Below are positions 309 to 63,590 of a stretch of DNA of 64,000 bases, in pieces. Positions within the stretch are counted from its first letter, which is position 1. Every line of letters begins with the position of its first letter. The position numbers were made by a program, and so were the translations under genes. The notes under the pieces were generated by a model that saw nothing but the letters and a program-made list of their open reading frames with translations, had not been told where the DNA came from and did not search any database. Source of the DNA: Prevotella nigrescens (GTDB lineage: Bacteria; Bacteroidota; Bacteroidia; Bacteroidales; Bacteroidaceae); the NCBI RefSeq assembly GCF_031191185.1, contig NZ_CP133464.1, positions 124,001-188,000 of the forward strand, read 5' to 3'.

Positions 309-422
309 TTGTAAAACAGGCTCTTTTGGAAAGCAAAACAGGCTCTTTTGGGAGGCAAGACAGGCGTTTTTGCAATGCCAATCCCACTGTTTCGCCATGC
401 ACTGATAATGAATGAGTTACAT
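309..422. repeat. intergenic 22-bp unit repeat, copy R1
   Basis: Three units of about 22 bp with core AAAACAGGCTCTTTT or a variant occupy 309-370. A degenerate unit and the flank ACTGATAATGAATGAGTTAC (401-420) follow; this flank resembles the CTGACAATGAGATGGTTGCA flank of copy R7. The copy lies between the convergent DUF1858 and queG genes. Confidence 0.8.
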
Positions 423-544
423 GAAGTCTATTCTTGTGAAAACACTTACACTTTTCTTAGGTGTCAGAAATATAACGGACGCAAGGCAGCCGGGAATGTA
501 GGAGTGGCATTCATCGCATTCCTGACAGCCACGACAAGCAAAAA

Positions 545-1495
545 TCAGGTTTTGTCCTTGGCGGAAATGTTCCGCTTCAGACCGTCGAACTTGGCACGTT
601 TCACTGCCGAACCCTTGAAAAGGGCACGATATTGCTCGACGGTAAGGTTGTGCCAATCGGCTTTCGTCATGGCAAGCAGCTCGGACTTGGGCTGAAACTC
701 GGGCGTAGTATTGGGCGTTGCAAACTTGTTCCATGGGCAGGCGGTCTGACAGCGGTCGCACCCATAGATGGTTGAACCCATGCTCTGTTTGGCTTGTTCG
801 GAGAGTTCGCCACGGTTTTCGATGAGCTGATAGGACAGACAACGCTCGCTGTCGAAATTAAAGTCATCGGTTATTGCACAGGTCGGACAGGCTTCTATGC
901 AACGGCGGCACTTGCCACAGCGGCTCGGCATGGGGCTGTCGTAGCTGTCGAACTCGAAAGGCAGGAAGATTTCGCCGAGAAAAAACATCGAACCGGCATG
1001 GGGAATGATGAGCTGATGGTTCTTTCCTATCCACCCTAAACCTGCCCGCTGCGCCCAATAGCGTTCCAAAACGGGAGCTGTATCTACAAAAACACGTATC
1101 TCTCCGGTGGGTTCTTCATGGTTATTGGTGTGAAAGTTGTTGATGATAATGGCAGCAAGCTGTCGTAGTTTCGCCTTCATCACATCGTGATAGTCCTGCC
1201 CGTAGGCGTAGGCAGCCAGCTGATACTCGGTTTCGGGCATGGTCTTGGCAGGTGCATAGTTCATGGCGAGCGACACGATGGACTTCGTTCCGGGCACGAG
1301 CAAGCAGGGATTGAGCCGCTTTTCGGTGTAGTTCGCCATGTAGTCCATCGTGGCTTGGCTGCCTTTGCTTATCCAACGGCGCACGGCAGCAGCCGTTTCG
1401 GCATCTACCGGTGCTGCAGGTACAACGCCACAAGCAAAAAAGCCGAGACTTTCTGCCTCGGCTTTAATCTCCTTCCTTGAATATTTTAAACTCAT
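545..1495 (-). CDS. queG: epoxyqueuosine reductase QueG
   Basis: QueG catalyses the last step of queuosine synthesis, the cobalamin- and iron-sulfur-dependent reduction of epoxyqueuosine to queuosine in tRNA, in the cytoplasm. At 316 residues it is near the usual bacterial length, though some family members carry extra C-terminal HEAT repeats that are absent here. The N-terminal half contains the DUF1730 domain (VSLAMNYAP). Two ferredoxin-type clusters follow: CGKCRRCIEACP near residue 190 and CDRCQTACPW near residue 245. The start codon at 1495 lies 32 bases inside the 3' end of the upstream deacetylase gene, so the two are probably co-transcribed and translationally coupled. The product is clear; the partnership with the deacetylase is a transcription arrangement only. 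Confidence 0.95.
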   Translation of the reverse strand: MSLKYSRKEIKAEAESLGFFACGVVPAAPVDAETAAAVRRWISKGSQATMDYMANYTEKRLNPCLLVPGTKSIVSLAMNYAPAKTMPETEYQLAAYAYGQDYHDVMKAKLRQLAAIIINNFHTNNHEEPTGEIRVFVDTAPVLERYWAQRAGLGWIGKNHQLIIPHAGSMFFLGEIFLPFEFDSYDSPMPSRCGKCRRCIEACPTCAITDDFNFDSERCLSYQLIENRGELSEQAKQSMGSTIYGCDRCQTACPWNKFATPNTTPEFQPKSELLAMTKADWHNLTVEQYRALFKGSAVKRAKFDGLKRNISAKDKT

Positions 1496-2084
1496 ATCCT
1501 TCGTGTTTCAGCCACTCCAAAGCATGCGGCAAGGCGTAATGAAGCTTGTCGATGCTCTTCAACGAATCGTGAAACGTAATGATAGACCCATTGCGTGCGT
1601 ACCTGCGGACGTTGCGGAGAACGTCGTGTCCCGTAAGCCATTTGGAGTAATCGCGGGTTACAAGGTCCCACATAACCACCCTGTACCTCCGTTTCACCCA
1701 CCGATAGACACTATGGCGGAGCCACCCATGCGGCGGACGGAAGAACTTTGACTTGATAAGGGCGTTGGCTTCGGTTACGTCAACGGCATAGGTAAGGGTG
1801 AAATGCTTGAACGAACCCAGGTGATGATAGGTGTGGTTGCCCACCAGATGCCCCCTGCGCACCACTTCTTCGTAGAGTTCAGGATACTTCCTTACGTTGT
1901 CGCCAACCACAAAGAAGGTTGCTTTCGCACCATATTTGTCGAGCGTGTCGAGTATGAAAGGCGTTGCTTCGGGTATCGGACCGTCGTCGAATGTGAGGTA
2001 GACGGCATGTTCGTCGGGCGACATTCGCCACAAAGCGTGTGGGTAAAGCCATCGCAACCAGCGTGCAGATTGTTCTATAAACAT
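1464..2084 (-). CDS. polysaccharide deacetylase family protein (NodB domain, CE4)
   Basis: This 206-residue protein is essentially one NodB homology domain, which removes N- or O-acetyl groups from cell-wall or surface sugars using a metal ion. Visible catalytic features are TFDDGP (catalytic Asp plus metal Asp), GNHTYHH (the metal His pair), RPPHGW and a late HDS motif (FHDSLKS). No clear signal peptide is present; the N-terminus (MFIEQSARWLRWLYPHALWR) is short, aromatic and basic and may be membrane-associated. The gene runs 32 bases into queG downstream. The substrate cannot be read from the sequence; peptidoglycan, chitooligosaccharide-like and exopolysaccharide substrates are all known for the family. 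Confidence 0.9.
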   Translation of the reverse strand: MFIEQSARWLRWLYPHALWRMSPDEHAVYLTFDDGPIPEATPFILDTLDKYGAKATFFVVGDNVRKYPELYEEVVRRGHLVGNHTYHHLGSFKHFTLTYAVDVTEANALIKSKFFRPPHGWLRHSVYRWVKRRYRVVMWDLVTRDYSKWLTGHDVLRNVRRYARNGSIITFHDSLKSIDKLHYALPHALEWLKHEGYEFKIFKEGD

Positions 2085-2251
2085 AAGTAAATGTGTACTC
2101 GTTGTGCCATATAACAGCAGTTTGAAAATATTGTTTTTATGTGGCTGATCGAGAATAACCTATCTCTATCCTATCCGTAACCGCATATAAACAACTGGAA
2201 ATAAGTACTGTTGCAGTTCTGTTGTGTATCAAAGCCTGTGCTAAAAAACGT

Positions 2252-2275: not shown

Positions 2276-2282
2276 TTTACGC

Positions 2283-8099: not shown

Positions 8100-8187
8100 A
8101 CTGTGCAAGACGGTCTGTCTGGCTGTGCAAAAGAGCCTGTTTTGCATGGTAAAACAGTGCCTTTTACCGTGCAAAAGGCACTGTTTT
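8100..8187. repeat. intergenic 22-bp unit repeat, copy R2
   Basis: Four units (8100-8120, 8121-8143, 8144-8165, 8166-8187). Unit 2 carries the inverse core AAAAGAGCCTGTTTT, unit 3 AAAACAGTGCCTTTT and unit 4 AAAAGGCACTGTTTT, so units 3 and 4 are exact reverse complements over the core and can form a hairpin. Confidence 0.8.
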
Positions 8188-12836: not shown

Positions 12837-12947
12837 TTGCATAACCGTCTGATGTATAGTGCATTATAGCTCCCACCGTCTTACACGGCAAAACAGCCCC
12901 TTTTACACGGCAAAAACAGGCCTTTTGCAGTGCAAAACAGCCTGTTT
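12837..12947. repeat. intergenic 22-bp unit repeat, copy R3
   Basis: A left flank TTGCATAACCGTCTGATGTA is followed by three units (12883-12904, 12905-12926, 12927-12947). Flank and units are near-identical to copy R9 at 63440-63551 over about 110 bp. The copy lies between the convergent protease and DUF6377 genes. Confidence 0.85.
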
Positions 12948-13078
12948 CAGAACACAAAACCATATTTTAAGCTTTTCGTTGGAATTATCCTTACAAATCG
13001 GAAATCATTTCAAGGCTGGTTCTAAAAATGGTTTTCGCCTCCTGCCTGCACCTGTTTGATGCTCCAAAAAGGTAGCCT

Positions 13079-15354: not shown

Positions 15355-15420
15355 GCAATGCAATAGAGGCTCTTTTACAACGCAAAACAGGCTCTTTTAC
15401 CGTGCAAAAGAGCCTGTTTT
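15355..15420. repeat. intergenic 22-bp unit repeat, copy R4
   Basis: Three exact 22-nt units (15355-15376, 15377-15398, 15399-15420). Units 2 and 3 carry AAAACAGGCTCTTTT and its exact reverse complement, so they can form a 15-bp hairpin. Confidence 0.85.
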
Positions 15421-18520: not shown

Positions 18521-18569
18521 CGCAACGCCCCTTGAAGCTTGCAGGGATAGTAGGAATGCCAGTTTTCCT

Positions 18570-18606
18570 AGTATCCCTAGGGTTCCTAGGAATACTAGGA
18601 ACCCTA
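18570..18606. terminator. bidirectional hairpin within a TCCTAG repeat
   Basis: TAGGGTTCCTAG (18578-18589) pairs perfectly with CTAGGAACCCTA (18595-18606) around the loop GAATA. It sits between two convergent genes and belongs to the 9-nt-period TCCTAG family also seen at 51235-51270. Confidence 0.7.
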
Positions 18607-18637
18607 CAAAAGCTTATGCCCATAAGAAAGCTAACCC

Positions 18638-20430: not shown

Positions 20431-20560
20431 CAAGAGCCTGTCTTGCGCATCAAAACAGTGCCTTTTACACATCAAAACAGGCTCTTTTACACTGCAAAAG
20501 GGTGGGTTTTGCAGCGCAAAAACGGCTCTTCTGTATAGTATTGGCAATGAGATAGTTGCA
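20431..20560. repeat. intergenic 22-bp unit repeat, copy R5
   Basis: A half unit is followed by four exact 22-nt units (20445-20532), then the right flank TTGGCAATGAGATAGTTGCA (20541-20560), nearly the same as in copy R7. Confidence 0.88.
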
Positions 20561-28798: not shown

Positions 28799-30151
28799 TT
28801 ACGCATTCTCCTTCCGTAGCGTGTTCAGACCATTGCGTACAATCTGCTGTAATGGTTGCTTCGAACTGTCAACGAATTCCGCCAAGGCGAAGTCTTCGGG
28901 GCTTACTTCGTATATTCCCAGTTCTTCCTGCTTGTCGATGTTGCCCGTTATAATCGCCTTGATAAGGTATTCGCCATATATATCCATCGGCAACACGGAA
29001 TCATACTCGCCACTCATGATGATATTACGCCTTCCGCCTTTGATGCGCGCATCGAGATTGTATTCCTTTTTCTTGCCAAAGAGCCAGCTGAAATAGCTTC
29101 GCGAGGTTGAGAACTGGTCGAGACGGGGCATTATCCAGCCTGCAAACTCGTTCACATTGTCGCCTTCCGGCATTGCCACAACCTCCGATGTGTGTGCACC
29201 CAGGAAGGTATTGTCGTCTGCTATGGTGCCTGTCAGTGGGTTTCCGTTCAGAATACGCACGTGGTCTGTGTCGGTTAGTCGTCCTGCAACAATGTCCCTA
29301 ATGGGCGTTCCCACCAAGACTTTCACATACGAAGGGTCTTTCACCTTGCTGCCTGCTACGGCAACAACCCGTGTCAGGTCTACCTTTCCGGTCAGGAAGA
29401 GCTTTCCGAAGAAGATAACGGCAGTTGGGTCTACCGTCCAAACCACCTCTCCTTTGTTCACAGGAGACAGGTGATTGACTTGCACCCCTACGTTTCCAGC
29501 CGGACAAGGTCCGTCGAATACGGTAAGTTCAACGTTCTCTGCATTCGTCAGAGCCTCGCTTTCCTGCTGTGCACCAATAGATAAATAAACCTTTGCAAGC
29601 TTGGACAGTGCGGTTAATCCGGTCTGAAAGGCTTTCTCTTGCCCTTTCAGTTCATATTCAAAGTTGCCTTCCAGCGGCTTGTCTCTTAGTGCAGAGACGA
29701 ATATTGCCTTTGGTTTCGTGTCGGGAGTGGTAGACACTGCGTAGGGCAACTGGTTGATATAGCCAAACAGCCCGGCTTCCAAAAGTGCCTTCTTCACGCC
29801 TTCTCCATCGATTGTCTGCACGTCTTTCGCACCGAAATCGGCAAATATCTGTTCGCCGTCAGGCTCTATACTTACATACAAGACCTTTCTGCGATCTCCT
29901 CGCTCTATCGATTTTACAACACCACTGACAGGAGAGGCAAAGCCAACTTCCTCCGAATTTTTGTTCACGAACAGCGTATCTCCCACCTTGACATGGTCGC
30001 CTGGCTTCACTTTAAGCCTCGGAATGATTCCTACAAAATCGTCCGGGACAAGCCCATACAGCTTCGATGGTTCTTGTGGCATGGTCTTTTCCTTGGCACG
30101 TCCTTTTAGTCTTAGGTCCAAACCCTTACGCAATCTTATCTGTTTTGTCAT
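28799..30151 (-). CDS. nqrA: Na+-translocating NADH:quinone reductase subunit A
   Basis: The peripheral cytoplasmic subunit of Na+-NQR, implicated in quinone binding. ATG 30151 (MTKQIRLRKGLDLRLKGRA) fits the family N-terminus and gives 450 residues; an in-frame ATG at 30190 would lie on the promoter box. A biotinyl-lipoyl-like segment (VKVGDTLFVNKNSEEVGFAS) lies near residue 70 and ends the N-terminal domain. It is the first gene of the operon, with a minus-strand TATATTTG box at 30188-30195, and is divergent from tamB. Confidence 0.96.
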   Translation of the reverse strand: MTKQIRLRKGLDLRLKGRAKEKTMPQEPSKLYGLVPDDFVGIIPRLKVKPGDHVKVGDTLFVNKNSEEVGFASPVSGVVKSIERGDRRKVLYVSIEPDGEQIFADFGAKDVQTIDGEGVKKALLEAGLFGYINQLPYAVSTTPDTKPKAIFVSALRDKPLEGNFEYELKGQEKAFQTGLTALSKLAKVYLSIGAQQESEALTNAENVELTVFDGPCPAGNVGVQVNHLSPVNKGEVVWTVDPTAVIFFGKLFLTGKVDLTRVVAVAGSKVKDPSYVKVLVGTPIRDIVAGRLTDTDHVRILNGNPLTGTIADDNTFLGAHTSEVVAMPEGDNVNEFAGWIMPRLDQFSTSRSYFSWLFGKKKEYNLDARIKGGRRNIIMSGEYDSVLPMDIYGEYLIKAIITGNIDKQEELGIYEVSPEDFALAEFVDSSKQPLQQIVRNGLNTLRKENA

Positions 30152-30187
30152 AAACTTGAATAATGAAAACGTCTCTAATTGAGTGTG

Positions 30188-30195
30188 CAAATATA
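30188..30195 (-). promoter_or_regulatory. -7 box of the nqr operon
   Basis: Minus-strand TATATTTG, 36 bases before the nqrA start codon. No TTTG is seen at the standard distance. Confidence 0.5.
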
Positions 30196-30242
30196 CTTAT
30201 TTTTAATCAGTTTAGAAAACTTTTCGCTTCATTAATTTCACC

Positions 30243-33200: not shown

Positions 33201-34703
33201 CTGGCTTCCGGCTCGGTACGCATAAAGCCTTTGGGCACCACCTACACCGTGCAAGACGGCAGGGTAACGCTTGTTCCAAACGAAATCAGCCTCAACCACA
33301 TAGTCATCACCGACCCCGAGGGACACAAAGGTGTGATTACGGGCGGACTGCACCATCGGGCTTTGCGACGCCTGACGTTCGACATTGACGTACAAACCAA
33401 GAATTTACTTACCTACAACTTTGCCCGCAGGGCATCGTCGGGCACTTTCTGGGGGCGCATATACGGTACGGGCAAGTGCGAAATAATCGGTCGCAACAAC
33501 GAAATCACGATGAATGTCGATGTAACGCCGAACCGAAACTCGTTCATAACCTACAATGCGGCAAAGAACGCAATAGACGAAAACTCCTTCATACGTTGGC
33601 GCGACATGACGCCAGACTCGTTACAGCCTACTCTGAAACAAGATACTGCGTGGCTGAAACGACCTGCCAAAGATGAATATAACACAAACTTAGCCAGCGA
33701 CTTGCACATCAACTTCCATCTGAACACCACTCCCGACTTTACAATGAAGGTGCTTATGGACGAGAACACAGGCGATAATATCACCCTGAATGGCTCGGGC
33801 GTGCTTCGCGCCACCTATTATAATAAAGGTGCTTTCCAGCTCTTCGGCAACTACAATGTGGAGCGTGGAGCCTACAATCTTACCATTCAGAACGTCATAA
33901 AACGACAATTCACATTCAGCGAAGGCTCGCTCATAGCCTTCGGCGGCGACCCCTACGCTGCAACATTAAAGCTGAAAGGGCACTACACACTGAATTCCGT
34001 ACCACTCTCCGACCTGCAAATGGGCAGCTCGTTCCGCACCAGCAACACCAAGGTAGACTGCCTGTTGGACATCAACGGTACGCCCGAAGCACCCTCGATA
34101 ACCTTCGGGCTGAACCTGCCGGAGCTTTCTTCCGACGCAAGACAGATGGTGCTGTCGGTATTGAACTCCGAGCAAGACCTCAACCAGCAGGTGTTGTATC
34201 TGTTGGCAGTGGGTCGTTTCTACCCTCAAACAGCCAACAATGCCGGACAGCGCGACCCTAACCAGTCGGGGCAAGCCTCGCTCGTAATGCAGAGTATCTT
34301 GTCGGGAACGCTCTCGCAACAAATAAACACCGTGCTGTCCAACGTCATAAAGGACAACCATTGGAACTTTGGCGCAAACATAGCCACCGGAAACGATGGC
34401 TTCAGCAATGCCGAATACGAAGGCATACTGTCGGGCAGCCTGCTCAACAACCGCCTGCTTATCAACGGCGAGTTTGGCTATCGCGACAACGTTGCCACCA
34501 ACACATCGGCTTTCATCGGAGACTTCGACATAAAATACCTGCTCCTGCCCAACGGAAACATAGCCCTGAACTTCTACAACAGAGCCAACGACCGCTACTT
34601 TACACGCAACTCTCTGAACACACAGGGTATTGGCGTGATAATGAAAAAAGACTTCACCAACCTCCGCGAACTGTTCCACTGGAGAAAGAAAAAGAAGAAA
34701 TAA
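30243..34703 (+). CDS. tamB: TamB-like AsmA-family envelope protein (DUF490)
   Basis: A 1486-residue protein with one N-terminal inner membrane helix (WTAIGLYLLIIILLHLP), a long series of beta repeats, and the C-terminal TamB/DUF490 domain (GSGVLRATYYNKGAFQLFGN, LNLPELSSDARQMVLSVLNS, YLLAVGRFYP, YDIKYLLLPNGNIALNFYN-like end). TamB-type proteins span the periplasm as a hydrophobic groove and move lipids, or assist barrel assembly with TamA, at the outer membrane. No TamA homologue is in this window. It is divergent from nqrA with only 91 bases between the starts. Confidence 0.92.
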   Translation: MQQKNSSFALALKILKTLIRWGVWTAIGLYLLIIILLHLPSVQRFVGAQVADALAKKLGTKVRIERVDLGFLNHFIVDGLVIDDQNGRQMAKASRVAAQVDLLSLVNGDKVRISSAQIFGLNAQLYRATPDAKANFQFVIDSLKSRDTTHQTPLDLRIQSLIIRHGNVRYDLLSAPATPNRLNFNHLNVSNISAHINLNTLTDNRTDINVRNLSFAEASGLDVRNLRLHLKANKQLAEISNLLVQLPQSKINVPAYKVRFNDKSKNFNFATAHHLLRIEKSYLTPSDIACLLPSLQTFNQKLYLNTNVSGTANQLKIKMLALRYGNNEAAMTCKGGLARLTTQPAWNFNAMSVLLKGKLLQHINNAFQLKLPAEVSRLGDVRFRGEVRGAQNYHHAKGTLMLAHGNADIDFLLRGKTINAELHTPHFTLGNILTSSQLGTIAADIKVEASSNLRHINAKGIVPRLDYNGYSYRNIAVNGNYTNDTFSGKASINDLNGKLAIDGTVGNIRHFIEKKGTLMVNARIDADRLNLHNMHITDALGDRTLSFQTTLAGSGASVNDLIGKLTLDNFVMQESNSHRFKLDHLELKAANRLMGRSVDLLSDFGTLSVSGRFNYTSMVQSVRNVVGIYLPALTGTPQQWGKTTGNNVFHIEADITNTQLLHELTGLQVGLSPSLRVFGDVNEAHKTVALNVSAPRADYSGYHFENLSLALSTHNNALNIGLKGEWIDGAGRRLALQTIATAKHNELNTLSSFNAFAQKTLRGQIDCSAQFERQNGKLATHLHFAPSKIRIDTIDLQVQPSELTYVQNNLNIKHFELSNKEQHIIINGLTSGNPADSLTVQLKDIDVPYILDIVNFHSVAFNGLASGRVVLKSVFNHPRASANLIVKQFQFERGDMGTLYAQADYSNAEGRINISAEAIDEGASTNIEGYINLRHGYINLPIYAHDTRLTFMKKFCGSFMDDIKLRGNGWVKVVGSLSGVNLEGDMLASGSVRIKPLGTTYTVQDGRVTLVPNEISLNHIVITDPEGHKGVITGGLHHRALRRLTFDIDVQTKNLLTYNFARRASSGTFWGRIYGTGKCEIIGRNNEITMNVDVTPNRNSFITYNAAKNAIDENSFIRWRDMTPDSLQPTLKQDTAWLKRPAKDEYNTNLASDLHINFHLNTTPDFTMKVLMDENTGDNITLNGSGVLRATYYNKGAFQLFGNYNVERGAYNLTIQNVIKRQFTFSEGSLIAFGGDPYAATLKLKGHYTLNSVPLSDLQMGSSFRTSNTKVDCLLDINGTPEAPSITFGLNLPELSSDARQMVLSVLNSEQDLNQQVLYLLAVGRFYPQTANNAGQRDPNQSGQASLVMQSILSGTLSQQINTVLSNVIKDNHWNFGANIATGNDGFSNAEYEGILSGSLLNNRLLINGEFGYRDNVATNTSAFIGDFDIKYLLLPNGNIALNFYNRANDRYFTRNSLNTQGIGVIMKKDFTNLRELFHWRKKKKK

Positions 34704-34767
34704 AGCGGCAAAAACGGCAGTGTAGCAGTAAAAATATTGTTTTTATTTACTCCCATAAAGAGCATAG

Positions 34768-34798
34768 TATTTCTAGAAAATATAGTATTCCTATACTC
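34768..34798. repeat. degenerate TCCTAG-type 9-nt repeat
   Basis: A/T-rich stretch with TTTCTAGA and GTATTCCTATACTCCCTA, similar in spacing to the better copies at 18570-18606 and 51235-51270. Confidence 0.4.
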
Positions 34799-34833
34799 CC
34801 TAAATACTTTGAATTTTCAAGCAATTTTCCACT

Positions 34834-34921
34834 GCATTCCAAAACCTACCCTTTTGCGTTTCAAAAGAGCCTGTTTTGCATCGTAAAACAGGCTCTTTTG
34901 AAATGCAGGACAACCTTGCTT
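34834..34921. repeat. intergenic 22-bp unit repeat, copy R6
   Basis: Four exact 22-nt units. Units 2 and 3 carry AAAAGAGCCTGTTTT and its exact reverse complement AAAACAGGCTCTTTT, giving a perfect 15-bp stem. It lies between the convergent tamB and membrane protein genes. Confidence 0.88.
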
Positions 34922-34939
34922 GTCTTTCGGTATATATAT

Positions 34940-35647
34940 TTATTCGAAATCGTCGGTGCGGTAGCACTTTAGCCTATAATACGAAAGGGTTAATGCCAAC
35001 ACGCCCATTGCGAGGAGAAAGACGATTACTTCCCACGAAGTATCTTCCATTCCACCATACCAGAACACGGCTCGTGGAATAAAGATTAAGCTTATAATAA
35101 TAACAATAGCAAGTATTAGCAAACCCGCAAAGAACGAAAGGAAGGGGAAATAGACTGACACGGCAAAGAAAAACGACATGATAAAGAAAACGAAGGGCAA
35201 CGTATAGCTTCCTGGGAATGGTTCCAAGCCTACTTCCCACGGTGCCGGCTGATGCGTCGGTGTAGCAACAAAAATATCGAGCAGATGGGTTACAAACAAG
35301 AAAAAGAAGAATGGCAAAAGCACAAAAATTATCCAACGCACCACCCATTCGCCCCAAACAGGCACGCGCAACACTGGTATTTCGTATTTACGACTCATAC
35401 CAAACGAAGCTGCAATGCAGCAAACAAGTATAAATAGTGGGTAGATTACATATATAACCGAGCCGCCTCCGCCGTTTCCGGTGGGCGAACCAAAGCCACG
35501 AAATGCAGCGGTTACCATCTCTAACAATACCATTGGTATAATAATAGCTATTGCTGTGTTGCGTCTTTTCTTCTTTGTTGCAGCCCATAAGGCTCTTGCG
35601 TAAGCTACTATATTTACATGTGCACGTCTATTACAATTTCTTTCCAT
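34940..35647 (-). CDS. uncharacterised polytopic membrane protein
   Basis: A 235-residue protein with about six hydrophobic helices (AIAIIIPMVLLEMVTAAF, VIYVIYPLFILVCCIAASFG, WIIFVLLPFFFFLFVTHLLD, LPFVFFIMSFFFAVSVYFPF, GLLILAIVIIISLIFI, VIVFLLAMGVLALTL), a basic N-terminus and an acidic tail (CYRTDDFE). A glycine-rich loop (GSPTGNGGGGS) follows helix 1. I recognise no family. Its start overlaps the end of the upstream 300-residue gene by 17 bases, so the two are one operon and may form a complex. Confidence 0.75.
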   Translation of the reverse strand: MERNCNRRAHVNIVAYARALWAATKKKRRNTAIAIIIPMVLLEMVTAAFRGFGSPTGNGGGGSVIYVIYPLFILVCCIAASFGMSRKYEIPVLRVPVWGEWVVRWIIFVLLPFFFFLFVTHLLDIFVATPTHQPAPWEVGLEPFPGSYTLPFVFFIMSFFFAVSVYFPFLSFFAGLLILAIVIIISLIFIPRAVFWYGGMEDTSWEVIVFLLAMGVLALTLSYYRLKCYRTDDFE

Positions 35648-36533
35648 AAGGCTTTGCTATTTTTATCATTGGTTCGGTGTCGTATCCGAATGTTATATCT
35701 CCTCGTTTCTTTTCTGACACTTCTATTGTTTTATACGACTCGCGTGTGAAAAACGGCAGGTTTCCCTTACCTGTCAGCAGCAGCGTATCTACCTTGCACT
35801 GTTCGTCGTAGTAGTCTGTTTCGCCGTCAAGGTCTATGCGCATGTTCCTGATATGGGCTTTTCCAAGATCCATTTTGTAGGTAACCCACTGTGTCCAGAA
35901 CTCGCCTAACTCCGTTTTGCCATAGAAACGAAGGAAGGTATTGTAGGCAGCTGTGAAGTAGAGCGACGGTAAATGTGCATCAATCAGATAGAAACAGAAT
36001 CCCGGACTATCGGTTCTGATGGCACAGAAGTCTTTCATCACCGTCATGTAAACAAAGATAGTGTAGGTGTCTTCCTGCTCTACCATATCTATAAGTCGGT
36101 CGTTAGAGCTGTTTGTTTTCCAGCCCGTAAGCAATTGTTCATCGAAATTGGTGTAAGTATGAATCAGCCTATGCTTCCTGGTGTCAAGTACCTCTCCATC
36201 TTGAGTAGCCTTTCCGTAGAGTACATCGCCATTTTTTGTTATCTGCACCAAATCTTTTGGATATTTAATACAGCATTTGTTAGGGTCGTCAGTAAACGAT
36301 ATTGCCACAACAAACGAAACATCTGGCATATCGCGAAACCACAATTCTTTTGTACCAGTAATACGACTGATGGTGTAATTGTCTACATCAACGTTTACAC
36401 GTTTGGCTTCCGTTTCTGCCATTTCGTAGTCAAAGGGAGGCGGTCCTTGCGGTGCATTATTGCCAATAACCACCATTCCAAGAATGAGTAGTACTATATA
36501 GGCAACTCCAAAAATGTTCGAGGTTGTTTTCAT
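35631..36533 (-). CDS. uncharacterised membrane-anchored protein
   Basis: A 300-residue protein with one N-terminal helix (FGVAYIVLLILGMVVIGN) followed by a soluble beta-rich domain, probably periplasmic. Distinct segments are NYTISRITGTKELWFRDMPD, DFCAIRTDSPGFCFYLIDAH and KGNLPFFTRESYKTIEVSEK; two Cys near the middle could form a disulfide. No domain is recognised. It is the first gene of a two-gene operon with the polytopic protein behind it. No clean promoter is seen. Confidence 0.72.
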   Translation of the reverse strand: MKTTSNIFGVAYIVLLILGMVVIGNNAPQGPPPFDYEMAETEAKRVNVDVDNYTISRITGTKELWFRDMPDVSFVVAISFTDDPNKCCIKYPKDLVQITKNGDVLYGKATQDGEVLDTRKHRLIHTYTNFDEQLLTGWKTNSSNDRLIDMVEQEDTYTIFVYMTVMKDFCAIRTDSPGFCFYLIDAHLPSLYFTAAYNTFLRFYGKTELGEFWTQWVTYKMDLGKAHIRNMRIDLDGETDYYDEQCKVDTLLLTGKGNLPFFTRESYKTIEVSEKKRGDITFGYDTEPMIKIAKPYGKKL

Positions 36534-36676
36534 ATTGTTTCTATTTATAAGTTATAGCAGTCTCAAGCGTTATAAGAAACCCATGTGGTGCACTGCATCA
36601 ACGGTCTGGCATGCCATGAAAAGCAACAGGGACACAGTCAGTTTCTCGTCAGACTGCCCCCCTGTTTCTCTATTTC

Positions 36677-37780
36677 CTATTCGTTTTTCACACCCACTTT
36701 CTTCGTCGGAGCCTGCTCCTTGTTGCGCCGGTTCACCACCGTTACCACGGCTTGGGCAAGGTTTATGAATGCCTGCCCGGTGATGCTGTCGATGTTTACT
36801 GCCGAAGGTTCGCCCTTGTCTCCGTTCTCGCAGATGCTTTGCACGAGCGGAATCTGTGCCAAAAGTGGGCAGTTCATTTCCTTAGCCAATTGTTTTGCGC
36901 CCTCTTTGCCGAATATGTAGTATTTGTTGTTGGGCAATTCGGCTGGTGTAAAGTACGCCATGTTCTCCACCAAGCCCAGTATGGGCACGTTTACTTTGTC
37001 GTTCCGGTACATGTCTATCCCCTTACGGGCATCGGCAAGCGCCACTTTCTGCGGCGTGGAAACGATTACTGCACCCGTGATAGCCAAGGTTTGCAGCAGC
37101 GTAAGGTGTATGTCGCTCGTTCCGGGCGGCGTATCGAGAATGAAATAGTCCAACTCTCCCCAGTCGGCGTCGGCAATCAGCTGCTTCAAAGCATTGCAAG
37201 CCATGCTGCCGCGCCACAGTGTAGCGGTGTCGGGATTGACGAAAAAGCCGATGGAAAGCAGCTTTACGCCATACTTTTCTATGGGTTCTATGAGCTGTCT
37301 GCCGTCTTTTTCTATGGCGTAGGGGCGTTCTTGCTCCACTCCAAACATCTTTGGCATGCTGGGACCGAACACGTCCGTGTCCAACAAACCCACTTTATAG
37401 CCCAATCGTGCCAGAGCTATGGCAAGATTGGCAGACACCGTGCTCTTGCCTACCCCACCCTTTCCGGAGCTGACGGCGATGATGTTCTTCACCTGTGGCA
37501 GCAGTTTTCCTACCTCGGGGCGCGGTGTAGACTTGTATTCGGTCTTTATTTCAACCTCCACGTCCTTGCCCACGGAGTAGTGTATCTGCGCTTCGGCAGC
37601 CTTGACAGTAGACTTCAGGAAAGGGTCGGTGTCTCTGGGGAACACCAAAGTGAAGCTAACCTTGTTTCCATCAATGCGTATATCGTCGGCAAGCATGTCG
37701 CTTTCTATGATGTTTTTCTTTGTTCCGGGGTACATCACCTGCTCCAAGGCTTTGGTAATGAGTTTTGGATATAATTCCAT
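36677..37780 (-). CDS. mrp: Mrp/NBP35-family P-loop ATPase
   Basis: The 367-residue product (from ATG 37780, MELYPKLITKALEQVMYPGT) has an N-terminal MIP18/DUF59-like domain of about 90 residues and a deviant Walker A SSGKGGVGKSTVSANLA near residue 105, with DTDVFGPSMPKMFG and LDTPPGTSDIHLTLLQ. Family members load or carry iron-sulfur clusters. The CxxC pair that bridges a cluster between subunits in ApbC is not present; the segment reads MAYFTPAELPNNKYYIFGKE. The gene has its own TTG-N20-TATCTTTG promoter. Confidence 0.92.
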   Translation of the reverse strand: MELYPKLITKALEQVMYPGTKKNIIESDMLADDIRIDGNKVSFTLVFPRDTDPFLKSTVKAAEAQIHYSVGKDVEVEIKTEYKSTPRPEVGKLLPQVKNIIAVSSGKGGVGKSTVSANLAIALARLGYKVGLLDTDVFGPSMPKMFGVEQERPYAIEKDGRQLIEPIEKYGVKLLSIGFFVNPDTATLWRGSMACNALKQLIADADWGELDYFILDTPPGTSDIHLTLLQTLAITGAVIVSTPQKVALADARKGIDMYRNDKVNVPILGLVENMAYFTPAELPNNKYYIFGKEGAKQLAKEMNCPLLAQIPLVQSICENGDKGEPSAVNIDSITGQAFINLAQAVVTVVNRRNKEQAPTKKVGVKNE

Positions 37781-37809
37781 ATTCGTCTGTTTATGTTGTA
37801 TAGTGCCTG

Positions 37810-37840
37810 CAAAGATACAGAAAAAAAGTTGAAGTTGCAA
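37810..37840 (-). promoter_or_regulatory. promoter of mrp
   Basis: On the minus strand TTG (37838-37840), a 20-nt spacer, TATCTTTG (37810-37817). Confidence 0.75.
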
Positions 37841-38010
37841 GCCACCACGAACAAGATTGCTGTTGTGGCAGGGTTAATCTTTCAGCCCGATGCCTTGTGC
37901 CTGCGTTGCGGAATGGCAGGAAAGCGCAAGCCATACAAAGGCAGGCACACTGTAACCGGGGGCTGTCCTCGTTGCCAAACAACGCCCTTGCGCAGCTTGT
38001 TGTGGGGCAG

Positions 38011-38126
38011 GACACTGCAAAAGAGCCTGTTTTACGGCTCAAAACAGGCTCTTTTGCAGTGTAAAACAATGGGTTTTGCAGCTCCAAGACGTGCGTTTCG
38101 TATCTTTCTGACAATGAGATGGTTGC
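38011..38126. repeat. intergenic 22-bp unit repeat, copy R7
   Basis: Four exact 22-nt units (38011-38098). Units 1 and 2 are inverse to each other over a 15-bp core. The right flank CTGACAATGAGATGGTTGCA is at 38107-38126. This is the best-preserved copy for the right end. Confidence 0.9.
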
Positions 38127-38372
38127 ACAATCTGGAAATTTACGGAATATGTTTACGGATTTTTCATGTCGCAGCCATCAGTCCGCTTGCCTGTTACTTT
38201 ACATTCATTACATTGCTTCCTGCAATCTTTTATCTGTCTGTTGCCATCTTGGCTGCCATTCATTCTCGGCGTAGTTCGCTACGTTTTCGAGTGAATGACA
38301 GTCCAATCCGGCTAACAATGAAACAAAATACACCGAAGTTCTAATGTCGATTTGGGGCTAAAAGGCACGTCG
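38127..38372. other. intergenic stretch beyond the DUF2436 gene
   Basis: No gene, terminator or RNA is recognised between repeat R7 and the stop codon at 38373. Confidence 0.5.
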
Positions 38373-40214
38373 CTATGGCTTTACAACCTTTCTTCCGTTA
38401 ACGATATAGACACCTTTTGGCAGGTTCTTGAATTCGCCCGACAGGCGTACTCCGCTAACAGAGTATATGCTTTGTGGGACAGTAGGCTCGGCTGTAGCTG
38501 CAGAAATGCCCGTAGGGTCTTTCTTAATGGTTACCTTCGTCTTCACAGGGTCGCCATTCAGCACGATGCCATGCTTGGCTGGGTCGAACGTTGCGCCCTC
38601 TGGTTGAACTACATTACACCCTATGAGCGTGAGCGAAGCGAAGTCGCTGACAGAGCCATACTGCGTTCCTATAGCCGTAACGTCGGCGTTCTTGATGGTA
38701 AGATGTTCCTTCTCGCCTCCGTCACCTGCTATTCCGTACACCGTGCTCTCGGCATTCACGGTGCAATTGTCAATCGTGAGGTCGGTCTGATTGGCATAGA
38801 TGGCACAGTCTTTCAGACTTTTCGCATTGAGCGTCCCACCGCCTGTAATGGTGAGCGGAGCTGTAAAGCTGAGTACAACATACTCCGTTGTAAGATTGTT
38901 GTTGCCAACCAGCTTTATGGTAAGCCCGTCGGAGTGCGACACCACCGCATTGATAGTACCGGCGACAGATACATCTTGGAAAGTAAGAACGTTGGTTGCA
39001 GGGTCGTAAAGAATGATTCCGCTGACGTTGTCGAGCTTGGAAAGTGTTTTATAATTGGCAGAAGTAACGCGTGTGCCAGCCACTTCGATGTCGTAGTAGG
39101 TAAGTTCCTGCGCCTTGATAACCACCTCGTCCTTTACCAATTGTCCGTTCAATGCTACGCCAGCAAGACTTGCGTCGAAGCAAGCACCCTTAGGCTGCAC
39201 AATGGAACAGCCGTTGAGCGAGAGCGTCTGTATGCCGCACATACTGGCGTAGGTGTTTCCTTTTGCCCTGACCGAAGCGTTGTTGATGGTGATTTCGGCT
39301 CCTGCGAGTTCGTTTCCGACAGAGCCTTTGCTTTCAATTCCGCAGTTATCGATGGTCAGCGAGGTGTTGGGCGCAACGTAGAGCCCGAAGTTCTTGCCCG
39401 TGAGTTCCATCTTTCCACCGCCCGTAATGGTACAATTCCCCTTTTCAATGTTAAGCGCATGTCCGTCGGTAGAGGCGAGTGTGTTTGTTCCTTCCATGCG
39501 AATGGTGAGGTCGTTCATCGATGTTTTAATGGCTTCGTCGGTTCCGTACACGTTGATGGTGGCGTCGTAGAGACTTAAAACCTTCGTTGAGGGGTCGTAA
39601 AGCACTATGCCCTTGGTGTGTGGAAGGTCGTTGCAGTTGTCGGAAGTAACCTGCGTGCCAGCCACCCACAGCTGGTAGGTTTCTATTTTTCCATCTTCCG
39701 TAATCAGGAGCTTTGCCCCATCGTTGTTCACATCGTGCACTATGTGCATCGTAAAGCGGTAGGTCTTGCCCGCTTCAAACTTGTAATCGTTGCCCCGTGT
39801 GGGTCCGTCGGCATCGCCGGCAATCCATATCTTGGTGCCAGCCTGTGGGGCTGCAATACAGAAATCGTATATTCCGGCAGGTATTTCTATGCTTTCCTCG
39901 CCATCTACCACCATGTGCTTCGGTGTGGTAGAGGGGTCGGCACCGACAGGAATGGTATATTCGAAACCGTTGTATAGGTCGGCTGGCGGATTGTTGTTGT
40001 CCCAAATCGGTCCTTCTACGGGTATTTTGTCGCCGTAAAGGTTGTGGTCGGCATCGAGCAACAGCTGGTATCCGCTGCCGTCTCCCCACACATCGTGTGC
40101 TTCAAGAATAATTTTTGCCGTACCTTGCGCCCAAGAATGGACAGGCATTGCAAGCATAGTAATGAACAAGACGGCTATTGCCGCAAACATTTTTCTACGT
40201 AGTTTTAGTTCCAT
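38373..40214 (-). CDS. surface protein with gingipain-type DUF2436 domain, duplicated beta modules and sorting tail
   Basis: Translation from ATG 40214 gives 613 residues. A signal peptide ends near residue 30 (MLAMPVHSWAQ). Residues 31-175 match DUF2436, the domain of gingipain and HagA adhesin regions (IILEAHDVWGDGSGYQLLLD, NDYKFEAGKTYRFTM). Two repeats of about 195 residues follow, each with 'GI(V/I)LYDP', 'LTI', 'ITGGG' and an ending like GCSIVQPKGACFDASLAGVA / GCNVVQPEGATFDPAKHGIV, as expected of a beta-helix. The last 40 residues (IYSVSGVRLSGEFKNLPKGV) look like a T9SS type A sorting tail. Surface adhesion or haem/protein binding is inferred from DUF2436 relatives; no peptidase domain is present. 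Confidence 0.87.
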   Translation of the reverse strand: MELKLRRKMFAAIAVLFITMLAMPVHSWAQGTAKIILEAHDVWGDGSGYQLLLDADHNLYGDKIPVEGPIWDNNNPPADLYNGFEYTIPVGADPSTTPKHMVVDGEESIEIPAGIYDFCIAAPQAGTKIWIAGDADGPTRGNDYKFEAGKTYRFTMHIVHDVNNDGAKLLITEDGKIETYQLWVAGTQVTSDNCNDLPHTKGIVLYDPSTKVLSLYDATINVYGTDEAIKTSMNDLTIRMEGTNTLASTDGHALNIEKGNCTITGGGKMELTGKNFGLYVAPNTSLTIDNCGIESKGSVGNELAGAEITINNASVRAKGNTYASMCGIQTLSLNGCSIVQPKGACFDASLAGVALNGQLVKDEVVIKAQELTYYDIEVAGTRVTSANYKTLSKLDNVSGIILYDPATNVLTFQDVSVAGTINAVVSHSDGLTIKLVGNNNLTTEYVVLSFTAPLTITGGGTLNAKSLKDCAIYANQTDLTIDNCTVNAESTVYGIAGDGGEKEHLTIKNADVTAIGTQYGSVSDFASLTLIGCNVVQPEGATFDPAKHGIVLNGDPVKTKVTIKKDPTGISAATAEPTVPQSIYSVSGVRLSGEFKNLPKGVYIVNGRKVVKP

Positions 40215-51206: not shown

Positions 51207-51234
51207 TTTTATTTTAGAATAGAGTTTATAGTTT

Positions 51235-51270
51235 TTCTAGGGTTCCTAGTTCTCCTAGAATACCTAACCC
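51235..51270. repeat. TCCTAG-type 9-nt-period repeat
   Basis: Reading TTCTAGGGT-TCCTAGTTC-TCCTAGAAT-ACCTAACCC, four 9-nt units. TTCTAGG (51235-51241) pairs with CCTAGAA (51254-51260). It closely resembles the reverse strand of 18570-18606. Confidence 0.65.
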
Positions 51271-55287: not shown

Positions 55288-55419
55288 GTGCAACCATCTA
55301 ATAACCAATACCTTGCGTTACCCTTTCCCTTATTTCTTAAAACCTACCCTTTTATACGGCAAAAGCGGTTGTTTTGCACCGCAAAACCCATGCCTTTGCA
55401 ATGCAAAAGTGCAGCCATC
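55288..55419. repeat. intergenic 22-bp unit repeat, copy R8
   Basis: The left flank GTGCAACCATCTAATAACCA (55288-55307) is the reverse complement, with few changes, of the right flank of R7. Four 22-nt units (55332-55419) follow after 20 bases. Confidence 0.85.
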
Positions 55420-61234: not shown

Positions 61235-62293
61235 ATGAAGCAGTTTATTTCGTTCGTTATCAAGGAAACAAAGCACATTGTCCGCGACAAGCGCACCATG
61301 CTTATCCTGTTTGGCATGCCGATAGTCATGATGCTGCTGTTTGGCTTTGCCATTACCACCGACGTGAAAAACGTGCGCACCATAGTGGTTATGGGCAATG
61401 CAAACCATGCCACACAGCAGGCGGCAGACTGCCTGGCAGCATCGGAAAACTTTACGCTTACACAGGTAGTGGCTACCCCTGACGAGGCAAAACGGCTCAT
61501 TCGCAACCAGAAAGCAGACATGGCTGTGGTGTTTCCGAAAGACTATGGCGGCACAACACAGTCGGTCCAGTTTATTGTAGACGGCTCCGACCCGAACATG
61601 GCACAGCTCTGGACGAACTATGCGGGGGCGGTCTTGACCAATCCGAAAGAAGGTCTGGTAAACTCGAAGCTGCTTTACAATCCGCAGATGAAGTCGGCAT
61701 ACAACTTCGTTCCTGCCATCATGGGAACGCTGCTGATGCTGGTCTGCGCCATGATGACGTCGATTTCCATTGTCCGCGAAAAAGAAAGGGGCACCATGGA
61801 GGTGTTGCTTGTCTCGCCCATACGTCCGCTTCTCATCATCGTTGCCAAGGTTGTTCCCTACTTGGTGCTTGCCTTTGTCATCTTGATTGCCATACTGCTC
61901 ATGGCTATTTTCGTGCTGGGCGTACCGCTGCAGGGGTCGTTGGGCTGGATATTTCTTATCTCCACGATATACATTCTCTTGGCACTCTCGTTGGGTTTGC
62001 TGGTTTCCAACGTTGCAAAAACGCAGCTCGTGGCACTTCTTTTGTCGGCTATGGTGCTGCTGATGCCCATTGTCATGCTTTCCGGAATGATATTTCCCAT
62101 CGAGTCGATGCCACGTATTTTGCAGTATGTATCTGCCATAATACCTACCCGATACTACATCAGTGCAATGCGAAAACTAATGATTATGGGTGTTGGAATA
62201 GAGCAAGTGTATCGCGAACTGGCCGTTCTTGTGGGCATGTTCGTCATACTTTTGTCGCTTTCGCTTGCCAAGTTCAATAAACGATTAGAATAG
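61235..62293 (+). CDS. ABC-2 type exporter permease (YbhS-like)
   Basis: A 352-residue ABC-2 permease: one N-terminal helix (TMLILFGMPIVMMLLFGFAI), a periplasmic domain of about 140 residues, then five helices beginning with IMGTLLMLVCAMMTSISIVR, and the family motif REKERGTMEVLLVSPIRP. It pairs with the next permease to form the membrane pore. It starts 75 bases after the ATPase gene and ends 6 bases before the next gene. Confidence 0.92.
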   Translation: MKQFISFVIKETKHIVRDKRTMLILFGMPIVMMLLFGFAITTDVKNVRTIVVMGNANHATQQAADCLAASENFTLTQVVATPDEAKRLIRNQKADMAVVFPKDYGGTTQSVQFIVDGSDPNMAQLWTNYAGAVLTNPKEGLVNSKLLYNPQMKSAYNFVPAIMGTLLMLVCAMMTSISIVREKERGTMEVLLVSPIRPLLIIVAKVVPYLVLAFVILIAILLMAIFVLGVPLQGSLGWIFLISTIYILLALSLGLLVSNVAKTQLVALLLSAMVLLMPIVMLSGMIFPIESMPRILQYVSAIIPTRYYISAMRKLMIMGVGIEQVYRELAVLVGMFVILLSLSLAKFNKRLE

Positions 62294-62299
62294 AAACAC

Positions 62300-63385
62300 A
62301 TGACGCTGAAATATCTTTTACGGAAGGAATTTACCCAAATTCGTCGCAATTCGTTTATTCCCCGCCTCATCATCGTCTTTCCAATAATGGTTATGTGTGT
62401 GCTTCCGTGGGTGATGAACATGGAGGTGAAGAACATCGTTGTAGATGTTGTGGACAACGACCGCACTACTACGTCGCAGCGATTGGTACACGAAATCGAG
62501 GCGAGCAGGTACTTTGTCTTCCACGGACAGCAGCCTGACTACGCGTCAGCACTCGGCAACATAGAGCATTCAGAGGCTGATATGGCAGTGGTCATACCCC
62601 GAAACTACAGCCACGACCTTGCCTTGGGACACATGCCTCAAGTGCTGATAGCTGCCAATGCAGTGAATGGAACAAAGGGAGCAATGGGTTCTGCCTATCT
62701 GTCGCAGATTGTTCTGTCGAGCGTGATGCCCACTGCTCCAGCCATGAAGTCGAAAATCGACACGCTGTTTCTATACAACGAGCACCTTAACTACAAGCTT
62801 TTCATGATTCCTGCCCTCTTTACTATCGTGCTGATGCTGATAACCGGCTTCCTGCCGACGCTGAACATAGTGAGCGAAAAGGAGACGGGCACGATAGAAC
62901 AGATTAACGTTACCCCCGTAAACAAGTGGATTTTTATTCTTGCCAAGCTTGTTCCCTACTGGCTCATCGCCTTCTTCATCATCACCGTCTGCCTCGCATT
63001 GGCTTGGGCTGTATACGGTATAACCCCGGTGGGGAGTGTCGCGCTCATCTATCTGCTGGCTATGTTGCTTGCCGTTTTCTTCTCTTCGTTCGGGCTAATC
63101 ATATCCAATTACTCCGAAACAATGCAACAAGCGGTTTTGGTTATGTGGTTTTTCGTGGTCATACTTTTGCTGCTTTCGGGCTTGTTTACGCCCACCCGGT
63201 CCATGCCGCAGGCAGCTTATCTCACCACGTATGTCAATCCCGTGTGCTACTTTATAGAAGCCATGCGCACCGTGTTCATACGTGGCGGCAACCTCGGCAG
63301 CATTGCCCACCAGGTGCTGGCACTCTCCGTAATCGGACTCTTTATGGGCTGCTGGGCTGTACTGAGCTACAAGAAGAACCATTAA
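62300..63385 (+). CDS. ABC-2 type exporter permease (YbhR-like)
   Basis: A 361-residue paralogue of the preceding permease with the same topology: N-terminal helix (LIIVFPIMVMCVLPWVMNME), extracytoplasmic domain, then five helices and the motif SEKETGTIEQINVTPVNKW. Last gene of the five-gene exporter operon. No T-run terminator is seen after it; repeat R9 follows. Confidence 0.92.
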   Translation: MTLKYLLRKEFTQIRRNSFIPRLIIVFPIMVMCVLPWVMNMEVKNIVVDVVDNDRTTTSQRLVHEIEASRYFVFHGQQPDYASALGNIEHSEADMAVVIPRNYSHDLALGHMPQVLIAANAVNGTKGAMGSAYLSQIVLSSVMPTAPAMKSKIDTLFLYNEHLNYKLFMIPALFTIVLMLITGFLPTLNIVSEKETGTIEQINVTPVNKWIFILAKLVPYWLIAFFIITVCLALAWAVYGITPVGSVALIYLLAMLLAVFFSSFGLIISNYSETMQQAVLVMWFFVVILLLLSGLFTPTRSMPQAAYLTTYVNPVCYFIEAMRTVFIRGGNLGSIAHQVLALSVIGLFMGCWAVLSYKKNH

Positions 63386-63439
63386 AGACAGCCGTCGGCA
63401 GGCTGTTCGGAATGTAAATATATTCCAGAAATGTGGCAA

Positions 63440-63590
63440 TTGCATAACCGTCTGACGTACAGCGCATTAAAGTTCCTACATTTTCATACGGCAAAACAGC
63501 CCCTTTTACACGGCAAAAACATGCCTTTTGCAGTGCAAAACAGCCTGTTTTGCATTGGAAGACAACAGGTATTGACAATGTGTGGATATT
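63440..63590. repeat. intergenic 22-bp unit repeat, copy R9
   Basis: The left flank TTGCATAACCGTCTGACGTA (63440-63459) is followed by three exact 22-nt units (63486-63551), a degenerate one, and a right flank with GTATTGACAATG (63569-63580). It shares about 110 bp with copy R3 and lies between convergent genes. Confidence 0.88.

What the first reader, a model, noticed from the sequence alone, without database searches (positions are those of the whole stretch)
309..63590. Nine-copy modular intergenic repeat family built from a 22-bp quasi-palindromic unit
Arrays at 309-422, 8100-8187, 12837-12947, 15355-15420, 20431-20560, 34834-34921, 38011-38126, 55288-55419 and 63440-63590 consist of three or four head-to-tail 22-bp units (about 32 in total). 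The core AAAACAGGCTCTTTT is almost its own inverse, so neighbouring units appear in either orientation and form hairpins of up to 15 bp. Positions 1-6 of the unit vary (ACACGG, GCAGTG, ACACTG, GCATCG) while the A-run, centre and T-run are kept. All copies are intergenic, mostly between convergent genes or after a gene. They are not CRISPR arrays because no unique spacers separate the units. A role as mobile REP/MITE-like elements, mRNA 3'-end structures or protein-binding sites is inference.
Basis: seen in the sequence. Interest (0 to 1): 0.75.

Follow-up and report, generated by a model that had tools for sequence, protein, structure and literature searches.

The report
Helically phased repeat arrays in Prevotella
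Between the genes of the mouth bacterium Prevotella nigrescens lie short arrays whose A-runs and T-runs alternate every 11 base pairs, about one turn of DNA; relatives keep this spacing at matching sites while the letters in between have often changed, and the arrays are predicted to bend DNA and likely serve as a docking platform for an unknown protein.

Summary
All nine arrays are present, and the core gives 182 genome-wide matches against 15 for the reversed control. The window lies in a Prevotella nigrescens replicon, and the element is almost certainly the known 188-bp intergenic repeat PINSR (Naito et al., PMC4755523).

New against what I could read: (1) The unit is a 22-bp lattice, AAAA-N7-TTTT-RCNNNGY. 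Neighbouring full units are 22 bp apart in 80 of 80 cases here and 201 of 203 in relative G392; the palindrome TTTTRCNNNGYAAAA lies in arrays 289 of 290 times. (2) The 7-bp words change while the lattice stays: at five diverged orthologous pairs tracts are identical at 147/160 positions, words at 63/140, flanks at 401/600. (3) The lattice reaches beyond the intermedia/nigrescens group, including P. pallens; outside the genus no genome had more than two matches.

Arrays avoid called genes and are predicted to be curved. Best reading: a curved docking platform for an architectural protein, working like E. coli BIMEs. Hairpins occur but are not universal, and no REP-type transposase was found in five array-rich genomes. 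Function remains inferred.

The parts
313..371 (.). Array 1, 3 units, words CAGGCTC, CAGGCTC, CAGGCGT; convergent genes
8129..8187 (.). Array 2, 3 units, words GAGCCTG, CAGTGCC, GGCACTG (units 2 and 3 complementary); divergent genes
12890..12970 (.). Array 3, 4 units (the last degenerate), words CAGCCCC, ACAGGCC, CAGCCTG, CCATATT; convergent genes; 86% identical over 125 bp to array 9 with its left flank
15362..15420 (.). Array 4, 3 units, words GAGGCTC, CAGGCTC, GAGCCTG (units 2 and 3 complementary); tandem genes
20452..20532 (.). Array 5, 4 units, words CAGTGCC, CAGGCTC, GGGTGGG, ACGGCTC, with a degenerate unit before it from 20430; divergent genes
34841..34899 (.). Array 6, 3 units, words CCTACCC, GAGCCTG, CAGGCTC (units 2 and 3 complementary, stem extended by the spacers); convergent genes
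38019..38077 (.). Array 7, 3 units, words GAGCCTG, CAGGCTC, CAATGGG (units 1 and 2 complementary, 22-bp stem); tandem genes; overlaps annotated hypothetical CDS 37829-38344
55339..55397 (.). Array 8, 3 units, words CCTACCC, GCGGTTG, CCCATGC; tandem genes; outer flanks of the PINSR type on both sides
63493..63573 (.). Array 9, 4 units (the last degenerate), words CAGCCCC, ACATGCC, CAGCCTG, CAACAGG; convergent genes

Best explanation
Each array is a tandem row of mostly three to five 22-bp units in which A4 and T4 runs alternate every 11 bp around variable 7-bp words, and it likely works as an intrinsically curved intergenic DNA platform on which an as yet unknown dimeric architectural protein would dock. 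Shown by calls or by the sequence: the 22-bp phase; the palindrome TTTTRCNNNGYAAAA confined to arrays; absence from called genes; tracts kept and words changed at orthologous sites; different word sets in different species groups. Predicted: strong curvature (wedge model, parameters recalled). Inferred: a dimer reads the conserved dyad TTTTRCNNNGYAAAA, its copies sit on one face of the helix, and the bound array organises or insulates intergenic DNA, as BIMEs are thought to do in E. coli. The words would be little constrained by the protein and would be renewed among copies by template switching or conversion.
For: Offsets between neighbouring full units, looked for from 16 to 30 bp, are 22 in 80 of 80 (G000) and 201 of 203 (G392) cases; TTTTRCNNNGYAAAA lies in arrays 79 of 80 and 210 of 210 times, Markov controls 1 and 0. 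The spacer starts with a purine in 98-100% and has C second in 75-82% in G000 and G392 arrays found by tracts alone. 0 of 58 and 0 of 57 arrays lie in called genes. Of 138 comparable intergenic regions 6 have an array in both G392 and G000, 2 only in G392, none only in G000, 130 in neither. In all eight shared pairs (seven loci) tract identity is 241/256, word 144/224, flank 727/959; in the five pairs (four loci) whose words changed, 147/160, 63/140, 401/600. A4/T4 runs elsewhere in orthologous intergenic DNA are 81-83% identical, so tracts exceed that control too (P 0.002-0.004 for the five pairs, 9e-7 to 2e-6 for the eight). The property shared by groups with unrelated words is phase: mean curvature percentile 99.0-99.8 among genomic windows of G000 in four groups.
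Against: No protein is known and none was searched for. The curvature result is partly circular, because the lattice defines the arrays, and in the same model a period of 10 bp would be more curved than 11 (1.485 against 1.374). Words are not simply free: in three genomes words of one array are complementary more often than shuffles allow, which a pure docking model does not need. Many species of the genus lack the arrays, and close relatives G250 and G224 have 0 and 3 matches, so the function is dispensable. The bias to convergent genes is mild. Orthologous pairs are few, and three of the eight keep their words.
Confidence: 0.4

Rival explanations
1. A dispersed selfish (MITE-like) repeat without host function: an unknown enzyme spreads it, the lattice is what that enzyme needs, and copies survive only between genes.
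For: Patchy copy number between close species: forward counts 667, 553, 255, 158, 134, 3 and 0 in G392, G017, G622, G000, G663, G224 and G250; near-identical element copies in G017 and G392 with shared flanks ending in GTAAA/TTTAC; never in called genes.
Against: Tracts of resident old copies are kept better than flanks and than other A/T runs. Naito et al. report no terminal inverted repeats and about three-quarters of sites shared by two strains (section 3.4). No parent transposon was found in the stretches read.
Confidence: 0.28
2. RNA 3'-end elements: the arrays are transcribed and complementary units form hairpins that end or protect messages from both sides.
For: Seven of nine window arrays fold better than shuffles. 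Complementary word pairs exceed column shuffles: 25 of 42 word sets in G000 (expected 10.1), 18 of 21 in G392 (13.4), 16 of 16 in G017 (12.2), 6 of 8 neighbour pairs in G004 (1.2). At two orthologous loci the partners change but a complementary pair remains.
Against: No excess of complementarity in G307, G012 and G233, and only a weak one in G010; in G006 neighbours are direct repeats, 14 of 22, with 1 of 22 complementary. In G392 perfect pairs are not in excess (9 against 7.7). Two of nine window arrays do not fold well. At two loci a separate terminator-like hairpin by the gene persists where the array is absent. Some arrays lie between divergent genes. The terminator scan of window 30000-40000 gave 12 against 11.0 and did not list the array hairpins.
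Confidence: 0.12
3. Strong gyrase sites: the phased A/T and G/C pattern lets gyrase wrap the array and relax positive supercoils between genes.
For: The E. coli gyrase motif is 130 bp with two 47-bp flanks of 10.75-bp periodic GC content, and gyrase cleavage sites are over-represented in BIME-2 (passages of PMC6379681). The arrays alternate A/T runs and GC-rich words every 11 bp.
Against: The lattice is continuous over about 60-105 bp without the unphased 36-bp centre, and does not continue into the flanks. The period is 11, not 10.75.
Confidence: 0.1
4. Substrates of a site-specific recombinase: T4/A4 arms around a 7-bp overlap, with words exchanged or converted during strand exchange.
For: Words are replaced in register while arms stay. 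CTnPg1-family elements of P. intermedia use the att site TTTTCNNNNAAAA (section 3.2.3 of PMC4755523).
Against: The spacing differs (5 against 7 between T4 and A4). In the G017 and G392 copies listed, word orientation at a given position is consistent rather than flipped. No rearranged product was looked for or seen.
Confidence: 0.07

Closest known systems
[quoted passage not shown] 2015, PMC4755523; abstract, sections 3.2.3 and 3.4 and passages read)
   Same: Intergenic, non-coding, high copy number, present in P. nigrescens; a copy downstream of tnaA in P. intermedia, and an array about 280 bp past tnaA in G392.
   Different: The text I could read gives no internal 22-bp unit, no word turnover and a narrower host range. 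Their PCR positives did not include P. pallens, whose genome (G663) has 134 lattice matches. The consensus figure was not held.
BIME / REP elements with RAYT transposases (Nunvar et al. 2010, PMC2817692; passages read)
   Same: Extragenic palindromic units, regularly spaced, in alternating orientation, with proposed protein docking.
   Different: No constant GTAG/GTGG tag. No Y1 transposase in G000, G392, G017, G622, G663 or G224; the one hit is in G250, which had no lattice match.
BrickBuilt MITE of Porphyromonas gingivalis (Klein et al. 2015, PMC4596501; abstract and passages read)
   Same: Intergenic element with a tandem minisatellite flanked by leader and tail, predicted stem-loops, order Bacteroidales.
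   Different: Unit of 23 nt with consensus AGAYCATARTATCCTCTCRTRTG, not the A4/T4 lattice. The same passages mention 22-nt repeats of P. gingivalis without sequence; not compared.
Strong gyrase sites (Sutormin et al. 2018, PMC6379681; passages read)
   Same: Helically phased A/T and G/C content, bending, intergenic repeats among the targets.
   Different: 130-bp two-arm pattern with an unphased centre and a 10.75-bp period; not met here.

Membership tests
PINSR | A copy downstream of tnaA in P. intermedia | tested here: met
   Array at L233:1031-1111, tnaA ends at 1390; that G392 is P. intermedia is inferred. The G000 tnaA locus has no array within the 1.5 kb fetched (L234).
PINSR | Intergenic and non-coding, high copy number, present in P. 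nigrescens | tested here: met
   0 of 58 arrays in called genes; 182 core matches in the P. nigrescens genome; one of nine window arrays overlaps an annotated hypothetical CDS.
PINSR | Match to the published 188-bp consensus | not testable with these tools
   The consensus is in a figure that is not held.
PINSR | No terminal inverted repeats | tested here: inconclusive
   Aligned G017 copies end in GTAAA ... TTTAC, a short imperfect inverted end.
REP/BIME with RAYT | Y1 (RAYT-type) transposase in the genome | tested here: not met
   PF01797 absent from G000, G392, G017, G622, G663 and G224; one match in G250.
REP/BIME with RAYT | Constant GTAG or GTGG tag at the palindrome foot | tested here: not met
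   The unit begins with A4; words such as CAGGCTC hold no GTAG in either orientation.
BrickBuilt | 23-nt unit AGAYCATARTATCCTCTCRTRTG | tested here: not met
   Unit is 22 bp with A4/T4 runs.
Gyrase strong site | Two periodic 47-bp arms around a 36-bp centre | tested here: not met
   Lattice is continuous and does not extend into the flanks.
Gyrase strong site | Gyrase cleavage in vivo | not testable with these tools
   Needs Topo-Seq.
Known RNA family | Rfam match above gathering score | tested here: not met
   Only two tRNAs in the window.

The most novel reading that the evidence does not exclude
A Prevotella DNA lattice that keeps its geometry and rewrites its text: T4-RC...GY-A4 dyads stay exactly two helical turns apart at old sites, while the 7-bp words between them turn over in concert into species dialects, either because a co-evolving DNA-binding partner reads the words or because an unknown enzyme swaps them as cassettes.
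Probability: 0.3. Interest if true: 0.8.

Novelty: new variant of a known kind. Interest (0 to 1): 0.6.

Why it matters
PINSR has been on record since 2015 as a repeat of unknown function. The lattice gives it an anatomy and a sharp, testable prediction: phase and tracts matter, words do not (or matter only to a partner of the same species). If a protein is found, it would be an architectural DNA system of the Bacteroidota comparable to BIMEs. If word exchange is real, it would be a visible case of concerted evolution of dispersed 7-bp cassettes in a constant frame. It may also explain why primers built on one species' consensus did not detect the family in P. pallens.

Tried and rejected
Membership in Rfam families, BrickBuilt and REP/RAYT was tested and dropped; CRISPR was dropped because the units follow each other without unique spacers. 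A G392 element (361 bp) had no match in 50,697 phage records; among 72,556 plasmid records only the P. nigrescens replicon matched. Looking for a parent transposon in the stretches read gave only nested TIR modules and no transposase. No target-site duplication of the array element could be read: the array-less G000 orthologues differ too much outside the array. The idea that hairpins are the universal property failed. Extension of the lattice into the flanks was not seen. The orthologue search with window protein 34940-35647 found 2 of 249 genomes, its own included, so I changed to the prolyl oligopeptidase gene. The terminator scan gave no excess. Free combination of 3-bp half-words, as in G010, was noted from listings and but not tested.
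Full report
WHAT WAS CHECKED. In one frame each is AAAA-N7-TTTT-N7 repeated, 22 bp per unit, three or four units in the window. The exact core AAAACAGGCTCTTTT or its reverse complement occurs ten times in the window, and with up to two mismatches there are 182 matches in the genome against 15 for the reversed control. The two-unit lattice gives 274/270 matches (forward/reverse) against 69/63 with two mismatches and 158/156 against 5/7 with one; the lattice is nearly its own reverse complement, so the two strands largely report the same places.

WHAT IT IS. A 15-kb piece of the window is identical to NZ_CP082843.1, a 567,798-bp replicon of Prevotella nigrescens FDAARGOS_1486 labelled a plasmid. 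Naito et al. 2015 (PMC4755523; abstract, sections 3.2.3 and 3.4 and passages read) describe PINSR: a 188-bp non-coding intergenic repeat with 177 and 184 copies in two P. intermedia strains, also in P. nigrescens, with a copy downstream of tnaA, no terminal inverted repeats and no known function. In G392, a near-complete relative in two contigs, an array lies about 280 bp past tnaA; the G000 tnaA locus has none in the 1.5 kb fetched. The arrays are almost certainly the core of PINSR; the published consensus is in a figure that I could not see.

ANATOMY. In arrays found by their tracts alone, the spacer starts with a purine in 98% (G000) and 100% (G392) and has C second in 75% and 82% (other genomes agree broadly, but most of their loci were fetched with a pattern that asks for these bases). 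The conserved thing is thus a 15-bp palindrome, TTTTRCNNNGYAAAA, repeated at two helical turns. It occurs 80 times in 1.26 Mb of G000, 79 in arrays, and 210 times in 0.94 Mb of G392, all in arrays; Markov controls gave 1 and 0. Neighbouring full units, looked for at offsets 16-30, are 22 bp apart in 80 of 80 and 201 of 203 cases. In the first 540 kb of G392, 50 of 62 detected arrays have exactly four units. Around the array G017 and G392 share flanks of about 60 bp a side ending in GTAAA/TTTAC; many P. nigrescens copies have lost or changed these flanks.

PLACEMENT. With a simple hexamer gene caller, 0 of 58 arrays in 864 kb of G000 and 0 of 57 in 540 kb of G392 lie in genes, at coding fractions of about 0.77. 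Contexts in G000 (54 placed) are convergent 19, tandem 27, divergent 8 (expected by length 15.4, 27.6, 10.9), and in G392 (55 placed) 22, 26, 7 (15.2, 29.1, 10.7): a mild lean to convergent genes. By RefSeq annotation the window has 4 convergent, 3 tandem and 2 divergent, and one array overlaps a hypothetical CDS. Arrays are denser on the small replicon: 45 in 464 kb against 15 in 400 kb of the large one.

DISTRIBUTION. In one search (one mismatch allowed) 22 of 60 genomes had a match, 17 of 36 of the genus and 5 of 24 from other families, the latter with at most 2 matches on a strand. In one search (no mismatch) 21 of 298 had one, 17 of 72 of the genus and 4 of 226 of other genera, each with a single place; one of these (G075) carries PINSR-type words, CCTATTG and CAATAGG. 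Many matches in the genus are at control level. Clear excess was seen in G392 (667 forward, control 0), G017 (553, 0), G622 (255, 4), G000 (158, 5), G663 = P. pallens (134, 1), G010 (73, 28), G004 (30, 5), G006 (29, 0), G027 (23, 2), G012 (18, 0) and G028 (13, 1); near relatives G224 and G250 have 3 and 0. Words differ by group: two words from different arrays match at 6 of 7 or better in 0.07-1.00 of draws within a genome and mostly 0.00-0.04 between distant genomes, with exceptions such as G307-G012 0.25 and G006-G017 0.18. Inside the close group the dialects overlap: G000 scores 0.12 with itself, 0.11 with G392 and 0.17 with G622, whereas P. pallens shares 0.00-0.01 with all of them (several genomes have fewer than six arrays).

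SAME SITE, NEW WORDS. Of 138 comparable intergenic regions between G392 and G000, 6 have an array in both, 2 only in G392, none only in G000, 130 in neither. Of 11 regions of G622/G663 compared with G392, 2 have it in both; of 16 compared with G000, 1 in both and 1 only in G622. In the eight G392 pairs (seven loci) tracts are identical at 241/256 positions, words at 144/224 and flanks at 727/959. Three pairs keep their words nearly or wholly; in two of those the neighbouring genes are 92-98% identical. In the other five (four loci) tracts are 147/160, words 63/140, flanks 401/600. A ninth pair, G622 with G000 at a site already counted, was left out of the pool and reads 29/32, 9/28 and 72/120. 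A4/T4 runs elsewhere in orthologous intergenic DNA are 81-83% identical (116 array-less regions, those under 55% identity dropped, and 9 array loci); tracts exceed this control (P 0.002-0.004 for the five pairs, 9e-7 to 2e-6 for the eight). At one site G622, G392 and G000 each carry a four-unit array in register with word identities of 6, 9 and 11 of 28. Ascertainment is limited: each compared G392 array either had a detectable G000 partner or lay in a region much shorter in G000.

HAIRPINS. Words of one four-unit array are complementary more often than column-wise shuffles allow in G000 (25 of 42 distinct word sets, expected 10.1), G392 (18 of 21; 13.4) and G017 (16 of 16; 12.2); perfect pairs alone are in excess in G000 and G017, not in G392 (9 against 7.7). 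G004 shows it strongly (6 of 8 neighbour pairs, 1.2 expected). In G006 neighbours are direct rather than complementary (14 of 22 direct, 1 of 22 complementary), and G307, G012 and G233 show no excess. Hairpins therefore belong to some lineages, the lattice to all that have arrays. Seven of nine window arrays fold better than shuffles. At two loci an ordinary terminator-like hairpin next to the gene is separate from the array and survives where the array is absent.

MECHANISM. The shared, word-independent property is phase. A wedge model with recalled parameters gives array windows a mean curvature percentile of 99.0-99.8 among genomic windows of G000 in four groups, one of them of distant species; the result is partly circular, the model would curve more at period 10, and the lattice does not run on into the flanks. 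With the conserved dyad, the 22-bp step and the tract conservation, I read the array as a curved docking platform for a dimeric architectural protein, like BIMEs in working but not in descent. The protein, the effect on the chromosome and the engine of word turnover are inferred. Gyrase is a specific candidate (passages of PMC6379681), but its 130-bp two-arm motif is not met.

LITERATURE LIMIT. Searches and 80 of an open-access library found no account of the 22-bp lattice or of word dialects in Prevotella; subscription papers and figures were not covered. Klein et al. (PMC4596501) and Nunvar et al. (PMC2817692) were seen as abstract and passages, PMC12393610 as outline and abstract, PMC516772 and PMC3940949 (A-tract phasing in bacteria) in the search listing only.

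Noticed in passing
L067:5174-5254, L070:2211-2313, L077:10204-10390 (G000 contig C2): A second, AT-rich lattice with the same 22-bp step, AAAAGTATATACTTT-N7; 5 exact AAAGTATATACTTT in 1.26 Mb of G000, two pairs 22 bp apart, none in 0.94 Mb of G392.
   Followed up: partly
window 18551-18615 and 51229-51266: Runs of 9-bp units such as TAGGAACCC / TAGGAATAC in both orientations (family D4).
   Followed up: no
G000 C1 against C2: Arrays are about 2.6 times denser on the 568-kb replicon than on the sampled 2.1-Mb one: 45 in 464 kb against 15 in 400 kb.
   Followed up: no
L086:800-1336; also L093, L094, L180: In G017 and G392 some arrays sit inside a larger element with terminal inverted repeats like ACGTGAGTTCGRYATAAGAAT; in L086 it is flanked by TAATATT on both sides, a possible target duplication.
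   Followed up: partly
G392 arrays (L173-L199): Words 2 and 3 are almost never alike: 1 of 21 distinct sets against 8.8 expected by column shuffling, as if each array must hold one word of each kind.
   Followed up: partly
window 37829-38344: RefSeq annotates a 171-aa hypothetical protein across array 7; 11 database relatives, none with a Pfam domain.
   Followed up: yes
G392 L188/L189 against G000 L230/L229: Orthologous regions whose genes are 92-98% identical, against about 85% for the prolyl oligopeptidase gene, suggesting recent exchange of DNA between the two species.
   Followed up: no
PMC4755523 section 3.2.3: CTnPg1-family att site TTTTCNNNNAAAA resembles the T4...A4 dyad of the arrays but with a 5-bp interior.
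   Followed up: partly
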